Positions 1 to 7,287 of a stretch of DNA of 7,287 nt are shown here, piece by piece. The notes under the pieces were generated by a model, which searched no databases, was not told the DNA's origin, and saw only the letters and a list, made by a program, of their open reading frames with translations. How positions within the stretch are numbered: position 1 is the stretch's first letter; each line of letters starts with the position of its first letter. Position numbers and translations under genes: made by a program. The stretch comes from Candidatus Altarchaeum sp. (lineage in GTDB: Archaea > Altiarchaeota > Altiarchaeia > Altiarchaeales > Altiarchaeaceae): NCBI GenBank assembly GCA_018260755.1, contig JAGTWP010000066.1, positions 1 through 7,287 on the forward strand, written 5' to 3'.

Positions 1-494
1 ATACATTTAATTTTTTCTTTTGCATTTCGTTTGAAATACTGATCCTTTGTTAATAAAACATTACATTTTGATTCAATTGCAGTTGCTAAATGTACTGCAT
101 CTCCGGCGTTTAGATTAATCTCATTCATAAGTTCCATTGCATGTTCCCAACCCTTATCATTTAGATAAATAAGAGTAAATTGAACCACCATTCCTGATAT
201 CTCGCCCATAATTCCAGTAGTTTTCTTTGTTACTTTGCTAAGTTCGCTCTTTTTTAGTTCTCGGTTAAATATCTCTCTCCGGATTACATCAAATGTTTTT
301 TTATTTTCAAATTCTCTTTGCGCAAAATAATCCTCATATTCCTTGTCGAATATCTCAAGATAAGTAAAATAAGAAGTTACCAACTCCACATTATATTTAT
401 AGGCATCATTAATAAATGTAATTGTGTCCTTATCTCTTTTTCGTATATAATCAAGAAATATATTAGTGTCAAGATAACATGTATATTTATCCAT
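1..494 (-). CDS. VapC-like PIN-domain ribonuclease (C-terminus cut by window edge)
   Basis: An open frame of 164 codons starts with ATG at 494 and runs off the left edge without a stop, so only the extreme C-terminus is missing. The protein begins MDKYTCYLDTNIFLDYI, a textbook first strand of a PIN domain with metal-binding Asp9. A mid-protein acidic residue follows (Glu47, in SYFTYLEIF), then the second half of the active site in GDAVHLATA (Asp132) and LLTKDQYF (Asp151). All four acidic positions expected of a Mg-dependent PIN nuclease are therefore present. PIN proteins of this size usually cleave RNA, often as VapC toxins acting on tRNA or rRNA. A GTGA ribosome-binding element lies in the 14-bp gap after the upstream small gene, so the two are probably cotranscribed. 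No recognisable VapB (AbrB, ribbon-helix-helix or Phd type) precedes it, so toxin status is inferred; a housekeeping PIN nuclease is the alternative. Confidence 0.87.
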   Translation of the reverse strand, partial: MDKYTCYLDTNIFLDYIRKRDKDTITFINDAYKYNVELVTSYFTYLEIFDKEYEDYFAQREFENKKTFDVIRREIFNRELKKSELSKVTKKTTGIMGEISGMVVQFTLIYLNDKGWEHAMELMNEINLNAGDAVHLATAIESKCNVLLTKDQYFKRNAKEKIKC

Positions 495-973: not shown

Positions 974-3900
974 ATGAACATTTCGGAATATTTTAAATTT
1001 ATCGGGGAAAAAGTAGAAGAAGAATACAAAATTGCCGGTGAAGCGAGAGCAAAGAATCTTGACCCTGAAAATTTTGTTGAAGCGGTAAAAAGTAAAAATT
1101 TAGCAGAAAGGGTTGAAGCATTAGTAGGGCCTAAAGGAGTTGCTTTGGCAATTCAGTCAGGAAAAAGCACAAAAGAAATTATTGATGAAATTTTAGAAGG
1201 AAAATACGAAAACAAAAACAAAGAACAATTAGCCGAACAGGCAGTCAGAACAGGACTTGCGATTGAAACCCAGGGCGTTGTTGCCGCTCCGATAGAAGGA
1301 ATAAATAAAATTTCTATTGAGAAAAATCCTGACGGAACATCTTATCTTTCCGTTTATTTTGCGGGTCCGATAAGATCAGCTGGCGGAACCGCCCAGGGAT
1401 TAACTGTTTTAATGACAAATTACATTCAAAACAAGCTCAAACTTGAGGGCTACAGGCCATTGGACGAAGAGGTGGAAAGATATGTGCACGAAGTTATACT
1501 TTATGACAGGAGATGCAAGCCATTACAGTATTGCCCAACAGAAGATGAGATAAGAACAATAGTAAAAAATATTCCCGTGTGCGTAGATGGCGACCCAACA
1601 GAAGATGTTGAGGTTATGGCACACAGGAACTTAGATAGAATTCCAACAAACAATATCAGAGGAGGAGCATGCTTAGTTATCGGAGAAGGACTTGCATTGA
1701 AGGCAAAAAAATTGGCAAAAAAGGCAAAGGACTTTGACATTGACTGGGATTTTTTACTGTCTGTGGGAAAAAAGAAGAAAGAGGGTAGTGAAGATGATAG
1801 AGAATACGCTGCCTTTATGTCAGAAATTGTCGGCGGAAGACCTATATTTTCATTTTCAAATACTTCTGGAGGATTTAGATTACGATACGGAAGAAGTAGG
1901 GCAAGCGGAATTGCCGGAAAATCAATGCATCCAGCAACGATGATTGCTCTTGATGATTTTGTTGCGACAGGAACACAGATAAAGATGGACAGGCCGGGAA
2001 AAGGTGCAGTGATTACATCCTGTGACAGTATTGAAGGACCAATAGTTAAACTGAAAAACGGAAATGTTGTAAAACTCAGAACTTCGGAAATTGCAAGAGC
2101 AGTAAAGAAGGATATTGAGGAAATTTTATTTTTAGGAGATATTTTAATAGGGTTCTGTGATTTTTTACAGACAAACACACCTTTGCTGCCATCCGGCTAT
2201 GTTGAAGAATGGTATCGGAAGGATTTAAAGAAGGTCGGAATTGAAAAAAGTATAGGTGAAATAAATGCAATGAGTGCATCGGAAGCAATTGAAATTTCCT
2301 TAAAATATGGTATTCCTTTACATCCGAATTATTTATTATTTTGGGAAGATATTGATTTGGAAAAACTTCGTTTGCTGCTCAATTTTCTAAAAAAGGGAAA
2401 TTTAAAGGAAGAAAAATTTTATATTTCTTATGATGCAGAAAAGGATGCAAAAGAAAAACGGATTTTGGAAATTTTAGGGGTTGAACATACGATAGAGGAT
2501 AACGATGTGAATAAATTTATTGTTGTAAGCGATTATATCTCTCTGCTTTTTCCGATTGGAATGCTTGAATACAATAATCAAAAATTTAAATTTAATCTGC
2601 CCGTAAATTTAGAAGAACAATTACAAAAATTACAAAATGAAAATGATGAAAACAAAAATGAAGAAAAAAAGTATGATGAGTCCCTTCCATTGGTAAATAA
2701 AATTTCAAAAGTAATAATAAGAAAAAAAGCAGGAACTTATATAGGAACAAGGATGGGCAGACCCGAGAAGGCAAAAGAAAGAAAGATGCAGCCGCCTGTT
2801 CATTGTTTATTTCCGGTAGGTAAATACGGAGGAAAAAGCCGTTTGATAAACGAAGCGGTAAAAAATAATTATATAAACATTGAAATTTTTGACGGGAAGC
2901 AGGTAAGAAAAGGGGAGTTTAATGTCAAAGAAATGTGGGATAAGGCATTGAAAGGCCTTAATATGCAGGCACCGGATGTCCGATGCGTTGAAGGAATGAT
3001 TTCGGCAGAAAAGATTCCTGAAAAAATAGAAAAAGGAATTTTAAGGGCAAAGAATGAGGTATTTGTGTTTAAGGATGGAACAATAAGATATGATATGACC
3101 GATGTTCCGCTCACTCATTTTAAACCGAAGGAAATTTTTACCTCTATTGAAAAGCTAAGAATGCTCGGATATGATAAGGACTATAAAGGCGAGCCTCTTG
3201 TTAGTGATGAGCAAATTTTAGAGTTAAAATGTCAGGACATTATAGTTCCGAAGGGCAGTACTGATTATCTTATCAGGGTGGCAAAATTTGTTGATGATGA
3301 ATTAAATTTGCTTTACAAAATGCCGCCTTTTTACAACCTACAAAAAACAGAGGATTTAATCGGCACGATTGTTGTCGGACTTGCCCCGCATACATCAGCA
3401 GGCATCATCGGAAGAATTATCGGATTTTGTGACGCAACATGCTGTTTTGCCCATCCTCTCTGGCATACCGCAAAAAGAAGAAACACAGACGGTGACGAGG
3501 ATGCAATAATGTTACTGATGGAAACCCTGTTAAATTTCTCCAAAAAATTTTTACCCGCATCAAGAGGTGGAAGAATGGATGCCCCGCTTGTAGTTACAAT
3601 GACCTTGGATGCAAACGAGGTTGATGACGAATCACACAAGGTTGAGGTTGTTGAATCATATCCCGATGGCTTTTATGAGAGCACACTTAAATCGGCAAAT
3701 CCTTCTGATGTAAAGGTGCAGAATATTGGAGATCTGTTGAACACAAATCCATACGAAAATTTAAATTTTACGCATGATAACGGAAATTTAAGCGATGGCG
3801 TTGCCAGGACAAAATATGTGTTGTTAAAAGATATGAGATACAAAGTAGATGCACAATTAGGTCTGGCGGAAAAAATAAGAGCGGTTGATGAAAAAGTAGT

Positions 3901-4225
3901 TGCTGAAATTTTGTTAAATTCTCATTTTTTGAGGGACATTCAGGGAAATTTAAGATCATTCGGTTCGCAAAGTGTCCGGTGCGGGAAATGTAATAGCATA
4001 TACAGGAGAATTCCGTTAATTGGAAAATGTCCGAAATGTGGGGAAAAACTAATACTTACAATTAACGAAGGAGGAATCCGGAAATATTTAAAAATTTCAA
4101 TAGATATCTCAGAGAAATATAAACTTAAAAATTATATACGACAGCGACTAATCATTCTGAATGAAAATATTGATTCAATGTTCGTAGAAGCGAAAAATCA
4201 GAAAAATTTAAGTGAGTTCTGGTAA
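974..4225 (+). CDS. polC: DNA polymerase D (archaeal DNA polymerase II) large catalytic subunit DP2
   Basis: DP2 pairs with the exonuclease subunit DP1 (not in this window) to form the replicative polymerase PolD. Numbering is from ATG 974 (1083 residues). Family landmarks in order are AGPIRSAGGTAQ near 130-141, YGRSRASG from 305, MGRPEKAKERKMQPP from 594, HTSAGIIGRIIGF from 806, and the catalytic stretch KRRNTDGDEDA with Asn837, Asp839 and Asp841 matching the metal-binding NxDxD of Pyrococcus DP2. A zinc finger uses Cys1003, Cys1006, Cys1019 and Cys1022. The last eight residues, QKNLSEFW, are a perfect PCNA-binding (PIP) motif. The protein is about 180 residues shorter than the Pyrococcus form (about 1260); the central CxxC-rich zinc module expected after FPVG..GG.SR is absent. 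A charged low-complexity linker occupies about 546-573. No intein interrupts the catalytic motif. TTG 947, in frame nine codons upstream, is an alternative start; ATG was preferred because it places the conserved EYF about where Pyrococcus has it. Confidence 0.97.
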   Translation: MNISEYFKFIGEKVEEEYKIAGEARAKNLDPENFVEAVKSKNLAERVEALVGPKGVALAIQSGKSTKEIIDEILEGKYENKNKEQLAEQAVRTGLAIETQGVVAAPIEGINKISIEKNPDGTSYLSVYFAGPIRSAGGTAQGLTVLMTNYIQNKLKLEGYRPLDEEVERYVHEVILYDRRCKPLQYCPTEDEIRTIVKNIPVCVDGDPTEDVEVMAHRNLDRIPTNNIRGGACLVIGEGLALKAKKLAKKAKDFDIDWDFLLSVGKKKKEGSEDDREYAAFMSEIVGGRPIFSFSNTSGGFRLRYGRSRASGIAGKSMHPATMIALDDFVATGTQIKMDRPGKGAVITSCDSIEGPIVKLKNGNVVKLRTSEIARAVKKDIEEILFLGDILIGFCDFLQTNTPLLPSGYVEEWYRKDLKKVGIEKSIGEINAMSASEAIEISLKYGIPLHPNYLLFWEDIDLEKLRLLLNFLKKGNLKEEKFYISYDAEKDAKEKRILEILGVEHTIEDNDVNKFIVVSDYISLLFPIGMLEYNNQKFKFNLPVNLEEQLQKLQNENDENKNEEKKYDESLPLVNKISKVIIRKKAGTYIGTRMGRPEKAKERKMQPPVHCLFPVGKYGGKSRLINEAVKNNYINIEIFDGKQVRKGEFNVKEMWDKALKGLNMQAPDVRCVEGMISAEKIPEKIEKGILRAKNEVFVFKDGTIRYDMTDVPLTHFKPKEIFTSIEKLRMLGYDKDYKGEPLVSDEQILELKCQDIIVPKGSTDYLIRVAKFVDDELNLLYKMPPFYNLQKTEDLIGTIVVGLAPHTSAGIIGRIIGFCDATCCFAHPLWHTAKRRNTDGDEDAIMLLMETLLNFSKKFLPASRGGRMDAPLVVTMTLDANEVDDESHKVEVVESYPDGFYESTLKSANPSDVKVQNIGDLLNTNPYENLNFTHDNGNLSDGVARTKYVLLKDMRYKVDAQLGLAEKIRAVDEKVVAEILLNSHFLRDIQGNLRSFGSQSVRCGKCNSIYRRIPLIGKCPKCGEKLILTINEGGIRKYLKISIDISEKYKLKNYIRQRLIILNENIDSMFVEAKNQKNLSEFW

Positions 4226-4296
4226 TAAATATAAAAAACAATTTTGGCAAAATTTTCAGAAAAATTTCTAAACCCAACTTTCCCCCATAAATTAAC

Positions 4297-4518: not shown

Positions 4519-4588
4519 CATTGAAGAATATGGTAAATTTGATAAAGTAAATTTAAATTTCTTTTTGAAAATAAAACAAAAATGTTTT

Positions 4589-4604
4589 GAAACAAATTTG
4601 TTTC
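4589..4604. repeat. Perfect 16-bp palindrome GAAACAAATTTGTTTC
   Basis: This sequence is identical to its own reverse complement. It spans the junction of repeat units 1 and 2 and most of unit 2, where AAAC/GTTT arms found in the other units are extended into a full palindrome. It is the best candidate for the strongest binding site of whatever protein reads the array. Confidence 0.7.
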
Positions 4605-4699
4605 ATAACAAAACTGTTTCATAACAAAACTGTTTCAAAAAAGCAAATCATTTTTTCTTAATATTTATTGATGAAAATAAAATTAATAAAACAAAACTG

Positions 4700-4707
4700 T
4701 TTTAAAA
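4700..4707 (+). promoter_or_regulatory. Candidate TATA box TTTTAAAA inside the repeat array
   Basis: TTTTAAAA straddles the boundary of repeat units 5 and 6, centred about 34 bases upstream of ATG 4738. Transcription would then begin near 4730, leaving a very short leader, in keeping with the absence of a ribosome-binding site. If correct, a protein occupying units 5-7 would block or assist the basal factors directly. Other AT-rich segments nearby, such as TTAATATTTATT at 4658-4669, could also serve. Confidence 0.35.
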
Positions 4708-4737
4708 CAAAACTGTTTCATAATAAGATCGTTTTAA

Positions 4738-6219
4738 ATGGATAAAACAACAAAGTTAAGAATATCTTTAATGCCACTTGATGACCCAAATCCTTTTGGA
4801 AGAGATGATACATTACACGAAATAGAAAGGTGTATCTCTAATTATGAAAACCTAATATTGTTAGGTGCCAGAAGAATTGGAAAAACATCATTGCTAAACG
4901 CTATAAGGAAAAGGAAAGAGGAAGGATACAAAATAGAGAGAGAATACGAAGTAATTTTCTACGACTGTGAAGAACACAGAAAAATAAATCAATTCTTTGC
5001 AAAGTTGTTTGTATCTACAACAGTTCCAAAAATTTTTGTTTCTTCTATTGGAAAGAAAAGCAAAGGAGAACTTGGAGAGGAAAGAGAAGTTGCTGAAAAA
5101 ACTATAAAGGGACAAGGATGTGAGCCGTTTCTTATTGAAAATATTGTGGAGTCTGATAATGGAACGAAAGTTGAAGAGAAAAATATTAAAAATTCATTTG
5201 CATTTCTTTTAATATTGGGAAAAGAAAAAAGTGATAAGGTAATAGATGAGTACAACTTCGCAATAAAATATAGTATTCCTATATTATGTTTAATAAAGGG
5301 GTTGGACGACAAAGAAAGAGATCATTCAATAATAAATATAATAAAAGATTTAGAAGAAAATGAAAGAGGAATTTATAAAAGATATGAAAATTTAGGCGAG
5401 TTTAAAAAGGTTTTAGAAACGGTGATAGAAGATAAAAAAGAAGAATGGAAGAAAAAGTGGATAAAAAGGTCTGAAAGTGATTCTTTTAGGGATGCTGGAG
5501 ATTCGTTTTTTACAAGTATTGAAAAGCAGACAAACAGGAGATTTTTAATACTCATTGATGAATTCGGAGAACTGAAAAGAGGTGATAAAAAAAACTTTGA
5601 TGAGTTTTTGCCATATTTTAAGACGAAGAGAGCGGGATTGAAAAATTGCACATTTGTTATTACTGGCTCTGAAAATGTATTTATGAGATCTTACGCCAAA
5701 TATTTTGGAGAATTTAAACGCATAAAAATAGAGAAATTTGACATTAAGACTGCAAAAGAGCTTATAATAAATGAACTGGGATGGGATAAACAAAATATAT
5801 TTTTGGATAAAATCATTGAAATAAGCGGAACGCTTCCAAAGGATTTGGTGTATGTCATTAGCGAATTGAGGGATTGGAACGAACAAAATTTTGGTAATAA
5901 TGAAGCAAAAAATATTATTGTAAAGATAATTGAGAAAGATTCGGAGTTTAAAATAGATAAACAATATACTTTTCTTGATGAAAATGAGAAAAATTTTATT
6001 AAGAATATTTCTGAAATTATTCCCGCATCAAAAAGAGAGATTTTAAGCAAGTACCATGAAGAGGAAATTTTTGAGAAGATATGCGATGAATATTTTATTT
6101 TGGATGAGAAAGACGGAAAATACGAATTTGTATCAAAGTTGATGTGGTGGAAGACAATTTATGACAATGATAAAGAAAAATTCAACAAACTCTTAGATAA
6201 TATGTTTAAAAATGGCTGA
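4738..6219 (+). CDS. STAND/ATPase_2-like NTPase with inserted DUF4062/TIR-like domain and C-terminal winged helix
   Basis: The protein has 493 residues. NPFGRDDTLHEIE (18-30) and Walker A GARRIGKTSLL (43-53) match the archaeal ATPase_2/MNS class of STAND NTPases. Walker B FLILIDEFGEL (Asp274, Glu275) and a sensor strand FVITGS (306-311) follow, then KFDIKTAKELI. The Walker motifs are over 220 residues apart, because residues about 96-235 look like a separate domain. That domain starts KIFVSS, continues with GEEREVAEKTI, and contains FAFLLILGKEKSDKVIDEYNFAIKYSIPILCLIK, the pattern I associate with DUF4062 and related TIR-like or nucleoside-deoxyribosyltransferase-like folds; Glu171 could be catalytic. 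A winged helix is likely at about 413-475. There is no signal peptide or membrane segment, so it is cytoplasmic. ATG 4738 directly follows the repeat array and overlaps no other frame. Its stop overlaps the next gene's start by 8 bp, so the two are coupled. The NTPase call is firm, the inserted domain probable, and the role in defence or signalling inferred. Confidence 0.85.
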   Translation: MDKTTKLRISLMPLDDPNPFGRDDTLHEIERCISNYENLILLGARRIGKTSLLNAIRKRKEEGYKIEREYEVIFYDCEEHRKINQFFAKLFVSTTVPKIFVSSIGKKSKGELGEEREVAEKTIKGQGCEPFLIENIVESDNGTKVEEKNIKNSFAFLLILGKEKSDKVIDEYNFAIKYSIPILCLIKGLDDKERDHSIINIIKDLEENERGIYKRYENLGEFKKVLETVIEDKKEEWKKKWIKRSESDSFRDAGDSFFTSIEKQTNRRFLILIDEFGELKRGDKKNFDEFLPYFKTKRAGLKNCTFVITGSENVFMRSYAKYFGEFKRIKIEKFDIKTAKELIINELGWDKQNIFLDKIIEISGTLPKDLVYVISELRDWNEQNFGNNEAKNIIVKIIEKDSEFKIDKQYTFLDENEKNFIKNISEIIPASKREILSKYHEEEIFEKICDEYFILDEKDGKYEFVSKLMWWKTIYDNDKEKFNKLLDNMFKNG

Positions 6220-7279
6220 AAAATCAATTAGTGAAAGTGATTTGGAAAGAATAGTAAAGACTGATACGGGAACAAAGATTTCCTATGAAATATTTAAAAA
6301 GTATTATAATAATTTAATAGAGCGAATAAAAAAAGAACCTTCTCTTTATTTGTTGCAGGGAAGAGGATCTTCCGGAAAAACAACTATTTTAAATAACATT
6401 TATGATGAAATAATTAAGGTTAAAGATTCTGCGTTTGTTGAAGGAGGATCTATATTTACTCCGAGAAGATTCTTTGATAATATTGGGATAGAAATAAAGG
6501 AGAATGAAGATTATAAATCAGCGGCAAATATTTATTTTTATGATTTTAATAAGGTCTTATTTATTGCTGATTTTGATAAGTTGCTTGCTAATTTGGGAGA
6601 GGATTTTGCTGCATATTTAAGAGCAATAATCCAGGAATTTAAAATTAATATTATAGGCACTGCAACTTTAGATAGCAAAGAAACGGACAAATATTTACTT
6701 AGATATGATACACCTTTTTATAGATTTTTTACGCACGTTCCGATTACTTACAATAGTGAAGATATAAAAGAGATTGGAAAAATTTATGGAAAAGAAATAA
6801 AAGAAGAAGACGCCAAACTAATCAGTAAAATTTTTAAAGACAATGTTTCTGCCATAAAAGATGTAACAAAAAACTACAACGGGGATGTGGATATTACAAT
6901 TTATAATGTAGTTAAGAGTAATCCCTCAATTATTAATGAAATTGCCCGGGATATATCTAATCAACAAAGGCAAATATTAGAAGATATGTGCAAGTATATA
7001 ATTGAAAACAACAAAGAGATAGTAACATTGGACGAGCTTGAAAAATATTTGTTTTTAGATGAAACGATTTTGAGAACACAAATAAATAGGCTCATAAAAA
7101 AAGGGTTAATCACTTTGGTTCGTTCGGATAAAAAGAAAGGTTATCTTCCTAACCGGGTTTTTATTGAAAAAAAGAGAATAGAAATAAGCGAAAATCATTT
7201 ATATAAAGGGAATAGATTGTCAGATAAAAAAAATTTTGAAGAAGCAGAGAAAGAATACAGAGAAGCAATAAAGATATAA
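6212..7279 (+). CDS. P-loop NTPase with winged helix and truncated TPR array (likely frameshifted at 3' end)
   Basis: The 355-residue product starts inside the last codons of the preceding NTPase gene (8-bp overlap), which implies coupled translation and a joint role. Walker A is QGRGSSGKTTIL (Lys56). A Walker B-like strand KVLFIADFDKL has Asp120 and Asp122 but no Asp-Glu pair. A sensor-like strand INIIGTATLD lies at 145-154. Residues about 250-318 form a probable winged helix (QRQILEDMCKYI ... LRTQINRLIKKGLITLV). From 327 comes a single TPR unit with Gly333, Ala345, Tyr349 and Ala352 at consensus positions, and then the frame stops. P-loop, winged helix and TPR in this order is typical of STAND signalling proteins, in which TPRs sense a ligand or partner. 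The stop appears artificial or mutational: removing two bases from ATATAAAT continues the frame with INPN, the expected TPR ending. The protein is probably much longer in a sister genome. Its specific function is not recognised. Confidence 0.82.
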   Translation: MAEKSISESDLERIVKTDTGTKISYEIFKKYYNNLIERIKKEPSLYLLQGRGSSGKTTILNNIYDEIIKVKDSAFVEGGSIFTPRRFFDNIGIEIKENEDYKSAANIYFYDFNKVLFIADFDKLLANLGEDFAAYLRAIIQEFKINIIGTATLDSKETDKYLLRYDTPFYRFFTHVPITYNSEDIKEIGKIYGKEIKEEDAKLISKIFKDNVSAIKDVTKNYNGDVDITIYNVVKSNPSIINEIARDISNQQRQILEDMCKYIIENNKEIVTLDELEKYLFLDETILRTQINRLIKKGLITLVRSDKKKGYLPNRVFIEKKRIEISENHLYKGNRLSDKKNFEEAEKEYREAIKI

Positions 7280-7287
7280 ATCCGAAT

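What the first reader, a model, noticed from the sequence alone, without database searches (positions are those of the whole stretch)
5023..5442. DUF4062/TIR-like domain nested inside a STAND-type ATPase core
In the 493-residue NTPase, Walker A (Lys49) and Walker B (Asp274) are separated by about 225 residues, where this ATPase class usually needs roughly 70-100. The extra stretch (about 96-235) reads as a complete alpha/beta domain: KIFVSS, an EER-containing helix, FLLILGKE, then DEYNFAIKYSIPILCLIK. This is the layout of DUF4062 and TIR-like domains, which normally sit at a protein terminus as effectors. Placing it between the strand after Walker A and Walker B would couple nucleotide state directly to effector geometry. 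I do not recall such an arrangement being described.
Basis: partly seen in the sequence, partly recalled or inferred. Interest (0 to 1): 0.78.

Follow-up and report, generated by a model that had tools for sequence, protein, structure and literature searches.

The report
NADase-like domain nested inside archaeal ATPase
A deep-subsurface archaeon (genus Ca. Altarchaeum) has a small gene family in which an enzyme domain of the kind that destroys the cell cofactor NAD is built into the middle of an ATP-driven switch protein instead of hanging off its end, always paired with a second switch protein, which looks like an unrecognised immune device.

Summary
ORF 4738-6219 is an archaeal ATPase_2 (PF01637, STAND-like) protein with a complete DUF4062 domain (about residues 97-237) between Walker A (K49) and Walker B (D274). 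Seven full-length copies occur in all four held genomes of the genus (Ca. Altarchaeum) and in none of the other archaeal genomes searched. The Walker A-B distance is 219-225 residues, against 98-127 in insert-less relatives, which otherwise align end to end (HHalign E 1.6e-23). DUF4062 passes its curated cut-off in five of seven copies. The insert profile's only significant PDB match is KpSwz, a DUF4062 NADase. The insert alone models well (pLDDT 85.6) as a five-stranded TIR/deoxyribosyltransferase fold. The invariant Glu171 aligns with KpSwz catalytic Glu97. Every other DUF4062 I placed is N-terminal, including DUF4062-STAND proteins. Each copy is followed by a co-evolving second ATPase (wHTH, TPR repeats) and preceded by arrays of AACANNNNTGTT palindromes. 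Best explanation: a two-gene STAND immune/abortive module whose nested NADase is switched by ATPase assembly. The anatomy is shown; activity, trigger and coupling are inferred. Verdict: new variant of a known kind. A full-length model failed, so the geometry is untested.

The parts
4575..4634 (.). distal array of four AACANNNNTGTT palindromes, 16-bp period
   Evidence: 6 sites in the window against 0.24 expected; arrays or single sites of this kind precede all seven copies
4690..4717 (.). proximal array, two AACAAAACTGTT palindromes just upstream of the start codon
4738..6219 (+). gene 1: ATPase_2-type NTPase with nested DUF4062 domain and C-terminal wHTH-like region, 493 aa
4864..4887 (+). 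Walker A GARRIGKT, residues 43-50
5026..5448 (+). nested DUF4062 / TIR-like domain, residues 97-237
5248..5250 (+). codon of Glu171, invariant, aligned with KpSwz catalytic Glu97
   Evidence: paper PMC13174449
5545..5562 (+). Walker B LILIDE, residues 270-275
5953..6216 (+). C-terminal wHTH-like region of gene 1, residues 406-493
   Evidence: colinear with the C-terminal region of insert-less relatives
6212..7279 (+). gene 2: NTPase + wHTH + start of a TPR array; overlaps gene 1 by 8 bases; breaks off at the contig end inside the first TPR

Best explanation
A two-gene, STAND-type immune (abortive) module. Gene 1 is an ATPase_2 switch with a TIR-like DUF4062 NADase domain inserted in the segment between the helix after strand 2 and the helix before the Walker B strand. 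Gene 2 is a second ATPase with a wHTH and a variable TPR array that most likely senses the trigger. On sensing, the two ATPases would assemble with ATP, bringing the nested DUF4062 domains together so that they hydrolyse NAD+ and stop the infected cell. The palindrome array upstream probably binds the wHTH of one of the two proteins and keeps the operon down. Shown: the nesting, the fold, the conserved catalytic-position Glu, intact nucleotide motifs in gene 1, constant pairing with gene 2, and the arrays. Inferred: NADase activity, assembly, trigger, repression and defence.
For: Insert: DUF4062 over cut-off; only significant PDB sequence match is the NADase KpSwz, E 5.8e-5; model pLDDT 85.6, pTM 0.82; TIR/NDT-fold matches DNPH1 Z 16.4, MilB 14.9, IL-1RAcPb TIR 14.2, SPARTA TIR 14.2. 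Glu171 is invariant in 7/7 nested copies, in 5/5 archaeal terminal DUF4062s and in all viral-contig rows, although the viral-contig search pattern required that Glu. It pairs with the position mutated (E97A) in the KpSwz structure. DUF4062 NADase activity and abortive phage defence were shown for KpSwz (PMC13174449). ATPase. Pairing with gene 2: 7/7, found in no other genome searched; distance matrices of the gene 1 frame and gene 2 correlate at r 0.93, exact permutation p 0.003. Same type of array directly upstream of a TIR-TPR gene. The genus is a frequent target of lytic viruses (PMC8324899, abstract).
Against: No PADLOC defence model matches gene 1, and the window shows no clear defence island. 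NWD1, NWD2 and NPHP3, which carry DUF4062 on STAND proteins, showed no NADase activity in vitro (PMC13174449). The nested domain lacks the [IL]SxT loop just before the catalytic helix. The full-length model was unusable, so coupling is untested. Gene 2 of the window has lost the first Walker B Asp (LFIADFD; the other six read FIDDFD).
Confidence: 0.55

Rival explanations
1. The nested domain is a NADase or nucleotide N-glycosidase/transferase that makes a signal or acts on another nucleotide rather than draining NAD+; the ATPase pair still switches it.
For: The closest folds are nucleotide N-hydrolases (DNPH1 Z 16.4, MilB CMP N-glycosidase 14.9). The weak second PDB sequence match is BlsM, E 0.23. 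The [IL]SxT loop before the catalytic helix is missing.
Against: Its only significant sequence relative with a structure is the NAD hydrolase KpSwz. Fold rank does not tell substrate.
Confidence: 0.2
2. The nested domain is a non-catalytic assembly or scaffold element, as many TIR domains are, and the output is DNA binding or regulation through the wHTHs.
For: NWD1, NWD2 and NPHP3 were inactive in vitro (PMC13174449). Both proteins carry wHTH regions and a palindromic array sits upstream.
Against: Glu171 and other residues of the DUF4062 signature are invariant and the domain diverges more slowly than its host, which fits enzyme constraint better than scaffolding.
Confidence: 0.17
3. An Orc1/Cdc6-like initiator or regulator pair of a mobile element, with the palindrome arrays as iterons.
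For: ATPase plus wHTH architecture, iteron-like 15-16 bp arrays, a weak PHROG match of gene 2 to a replication-initiation family, several copies in some genomes.
Against: No replication, relaxase or integrase genes recognised in the loci read. Similar arrays also lie near chromosomal gad and SAM-transferase genes and a TIR-TPR gene. A TIR-like enzyme domain and TPR array are not expected in an initiator.
Confidence: 0.06

Closest known systems
Swarozyc (KpSwz), DUF4062 TIR-like NADase phage defence, PMC13174449, PDB 10wc/11cq/11cv
   Same: Homologous DUF4062 domain, same conserved signature residues, catalytic Glu position kept.
   Different: KpSwz is DUF4062 at the N-terminus plus an auxiliary domain that binds phage portal; there is no ATPase. 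Here the domain is inside an ATPase and paired with a second ATPase gene.
DUF4062-STAND proteins: archaeal L045/L047 here; animal TEP1, NWD1, NWD2, NPHP3
   Same: DUF4062 joined to a STAND NTPase.
   Different: There DUF4062 precedes the NTPase domain (PMC13174449). Here it lies between Walker A and Walker B.
Archaeal ATPase_2 family (PF01637; PDB 2qen)
   Same: Colinear ATPase, lid and wHTH-like C-terminus.
   Different: No family member found outside the genus carries the 140-residue insert.
nSTAND2 two-gene counter-invader operon, PMC8195603
   Same: Both genes encode STAND NTPases, predicted to form a hetero-multimer; one carries the effector.
   Different: Different NTPase families and effectors (GT4, HEPN); effectors described there as fused, not nested.
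KAP P-loop NTPases (Aravind et al. 2004; title seen in a reference list)
   Same: Precedent for an insertion within a P-loop NTPase domain.
   Different: The insert there is transmembrane segments, not an enzyme domain.

Membership tests
DUF4062 (PF13271) | profile match above the curated cut-off | tested here: met
   25.3 against 24.7 bits for the isolated insert; five of seven copies over the cut-off
DUF4062 (PF13271) | TIR-like beta-alpha fold of five strands | tested here: met
DUF4062 TIR-like NADase | catalytic Glu (KpSwz E97) | tested here: met
   E171 invariant and aligned with the mutated position 97
DUF4062 TIR-like NADase | NAD+ hydrolysis | not testable with these tools
   needs a biochemical assay
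ATPase_2 / archaeal STAND-like NTPase | Walker A, Walker B, sensor GSE and C-terminal wHTH in family order | tested here: met
   HHalign E 1.6e-23 against insert-less relatives, which include Pfam ATPase_2 members
ATPase_2 / archaeal STAND-like NTPase | Pfam ATPase_2 above its cut-off in the nested protein itself | tested here: not met
   best seen 30.8 against 33.2 bits in L007, covering only the part before the insert; AAA_14 is over its cut-off in P0001
Swarozyc defence system | N-terminal DUF4062 with the KpSwz auxiliary domain | tested here: not met
   domain is nested and the PDB match covers only the DUF4062 part
known anti-phage system (PADLOC) | model match for gene 1 | tested here: not met
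   none for gene 1; gene 2 resembles mad8, E 1.1e-7, and BrxF weakly

The most novel reading that the evidence does not exclude
The NADase active site is gated directly by the nucleotide state of the ATPase core into which it is inserted, within a hetero-oligomer of two STAND ATPases: an immune NADase whose effector is internal to the switch rather than tethered to it.
Probability: 0.35. Interest if true: 0.78.

Novelty: new variant of a known kind. Interest (0 to 1): 0.62.

Why it matters
STAND immune proteins almost always carry effectors at a terminus and are thought to work by bringing tethered effectors close together. A nested effector would test whether nucleotide-driven change inside the ATPase can act on an enzyme directly. 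It would also add an archaeal, two-ATPase member to the newly recognised DUF4062 NADase world, in a genus that lytic viruses often infect and whose defences are little known.

Tried and rejected
A full-length AlphaFold model from two sequences failed (pLDDT 37.5) and is not used. The plasmid hit H1 (Paraburkholderia) looked like a second nested case but is a transcription-regulator STAND without the insert. KpSwz seemed at first to have its catalytic Glu at a position not conserved here; the structure was determined on the E97A mutant, whose Ala occupies the Glu171 column, and close relatives carry Glu there. No nested relatives appeared in IMG/VR, phages or plasmids. A viral-contig scan for ATPase_2 homologues, meant to deepen the model alignment, found none.

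Full report
What is in the window. The window is a whole contig (G000:C23) of a draft archaeal genome. Its nearest named relative carrying this gene is a Ca. Altarchaeum metagenome contig. It holds a PIN-domain gene on the minus strand, a gene I recognise from its sequence as the archaeal PolD large subunit, and the two genes discussed here. Gene 1 (4738-6219) has Walker A at K49 and Walker B at D274.

The insert is a complete DUF4062 domain. Pfam DUF4062 matches residues 98-162, with 25.3 against 24.7 bits when the insert is given alone. In the genus it is over the cut-off in five of seven nested copies. A profile of the seven inserts plus two terminal DUF4062s of the same genus has one significant match in the PDB: KpSwz (10wc), E 5.8e-5. 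The insert alone, modelled with 18 relatives, has pLDDT 85.6 and pTM 0.82, with five alternating strands and helices. Its closest folds are DNPH1, MilB, TIR domains of IL-1RAcPb and SPARTA, and deoxyribosyltransferases. The C-terminal YKRY...ELK part is shared with terminal DUF4062s, so the whole domain, about 97-237, is present.

The host is an ATPase_2 protein. Five insert-less archaeal relatives (L025-L029) align end to end with the nested family (HHalign E 1.6e-23, probability 99.6, columns 18-469), the insert being the part left unaligned. The two of them given to Pfam match ATPase_2 strongly. Their Walker A-B distances are 98-127 residues against 219-225 in the nested family. The insertion lies after the helix that follows strand 2 and before the helix that precedes the Walker B strand, where the relatives have only a short segment of roughly 30-55 residues.

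It is a family. All four held genomes of the genus have it (seven copies) and none of the other archaeal genomes searched do. All seven copies share the same insertion point, which points to one insertion event. The insert is more conserved than the lid and wHTH and diverges less between paralogues than the rest of the protein. Terminal DUF4062 is the rule elsewhere: the domain is rare in the archaeal genomes searched, the cases whose reading frame I read carry it at the N-terminus, two of them as DUF4062-STAND proteins (L045, L047), and all 28 viral-contig cases are N-terminal.

Catalytic residue. In the deposited KpSwz chain the position aligned with Glu171 is Ala. The structures were determined on the E97A mutant (PMC13174449), and close relatives from viral contigs read TEKEFDYA. 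Glu171 therefore occupies the catalytic position. It is invariant in the nested family, in five terminal archaeal DUF4062s and in the viral-contig rows; the last set was found with a pattern that required this Glu, so it adds less weight. The [IL]SxT loop in front of the catalytic helix is missing from the nested domain, which leaves room for an altered substrate or activity.

The partner and the operator. Each copy is followed, between a 17-base overlap and an 85-base gap, by a second NTPase with a wHTH and a TPR array; this gene occurs only there. The gene 1 frame and gene 2 have correlated distances, r 0.93, p 0.003. The TPR units are similar 102-base repeats (84-91% matches), which explains why contigs, this one included, tend to end there. 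Upstream of all seven copies are AACANNNNTGTT palindromes or near matches every 15-16 bases, six sites in the window against 0.24 expected. Tandem pairs match 3-18 times per strand in each genome of the genus and the reversed control never. Other arrays lie near a TIR-TPR gene, an ATPase_2-wHTH-Mrr gene, another ATPase_2 gene and an HsdM gene, but also next to gad and SAM-transferase genes.

Reading. DUF4062 proteins are NAD hydrolases that act in abortive phage defence and in TEP1 (PMC13174449). Two-gene STAND operons with an effector on one partner are described as counter-invader systems (PMC8195603). I therefore read this pair as a two-ATPase conflict module with a nested NADase effector. 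Activity, trigger, assembly and repression are inferred. A full-length model failed, so direct coupling of nucleotide state and active site is a hypothesis, not a result.

Noticed in passing
window 4575-4634 and 4690-4717; also L019, L020, L021, L022, L023, L008: Arrays of AACANNNNTGTT palindromes upstream of all seven copies; the inner bases are alike within a locus and differ between loci, as if each paralogue had its own operator.
   Followed up: partly
L106:1476-3005 (G003:C137): TIR-TPR gene with the same kind of array directly upstream, lying next to an aspartate ammonia-lyase-like gene; in G002:C41 the nested module sits next to the homologous lyase gene, suggesting a shared hot spot with different cargo.
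   Followed up: partly
L105:909-2510 (G003:C119): ATPase_2-wHTH protein with a C-terminal Mrr nuclease domain near a palindrome array.
   Followed up: partly
L037 (G000:C59): Own-genome 493-aa protein with two tandem TIR-like domains and a further C-terminal region.
   Followed up: partly
window 6554-6577: Gene 2 of this genome reads LFIADFD where the six paralogues have FIDDFD: the first Walker B acid is lost.
   Followed up: no
window 7240-7287: Gene 2 breaks off at the contig end inside its first TPR unit, with a frame break against the paralogues; probably an assembly edge in a repeat.
   Followed up: partly
L008:3-1082 and 2749-4260: In HURL_140 the end of another TPR array lies directly upstream of the nested gene, suggesting tandem copies of the module.
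   Followed up: no
L015, L016, L017, L032: The same genus has terminal DUF4062 proteins with a different C-terminal part, a possible source of the insert.
   Followed up: partly
window 3-494: PIN-domain gene on the minus strand, VapC-like.
   Followed up: no
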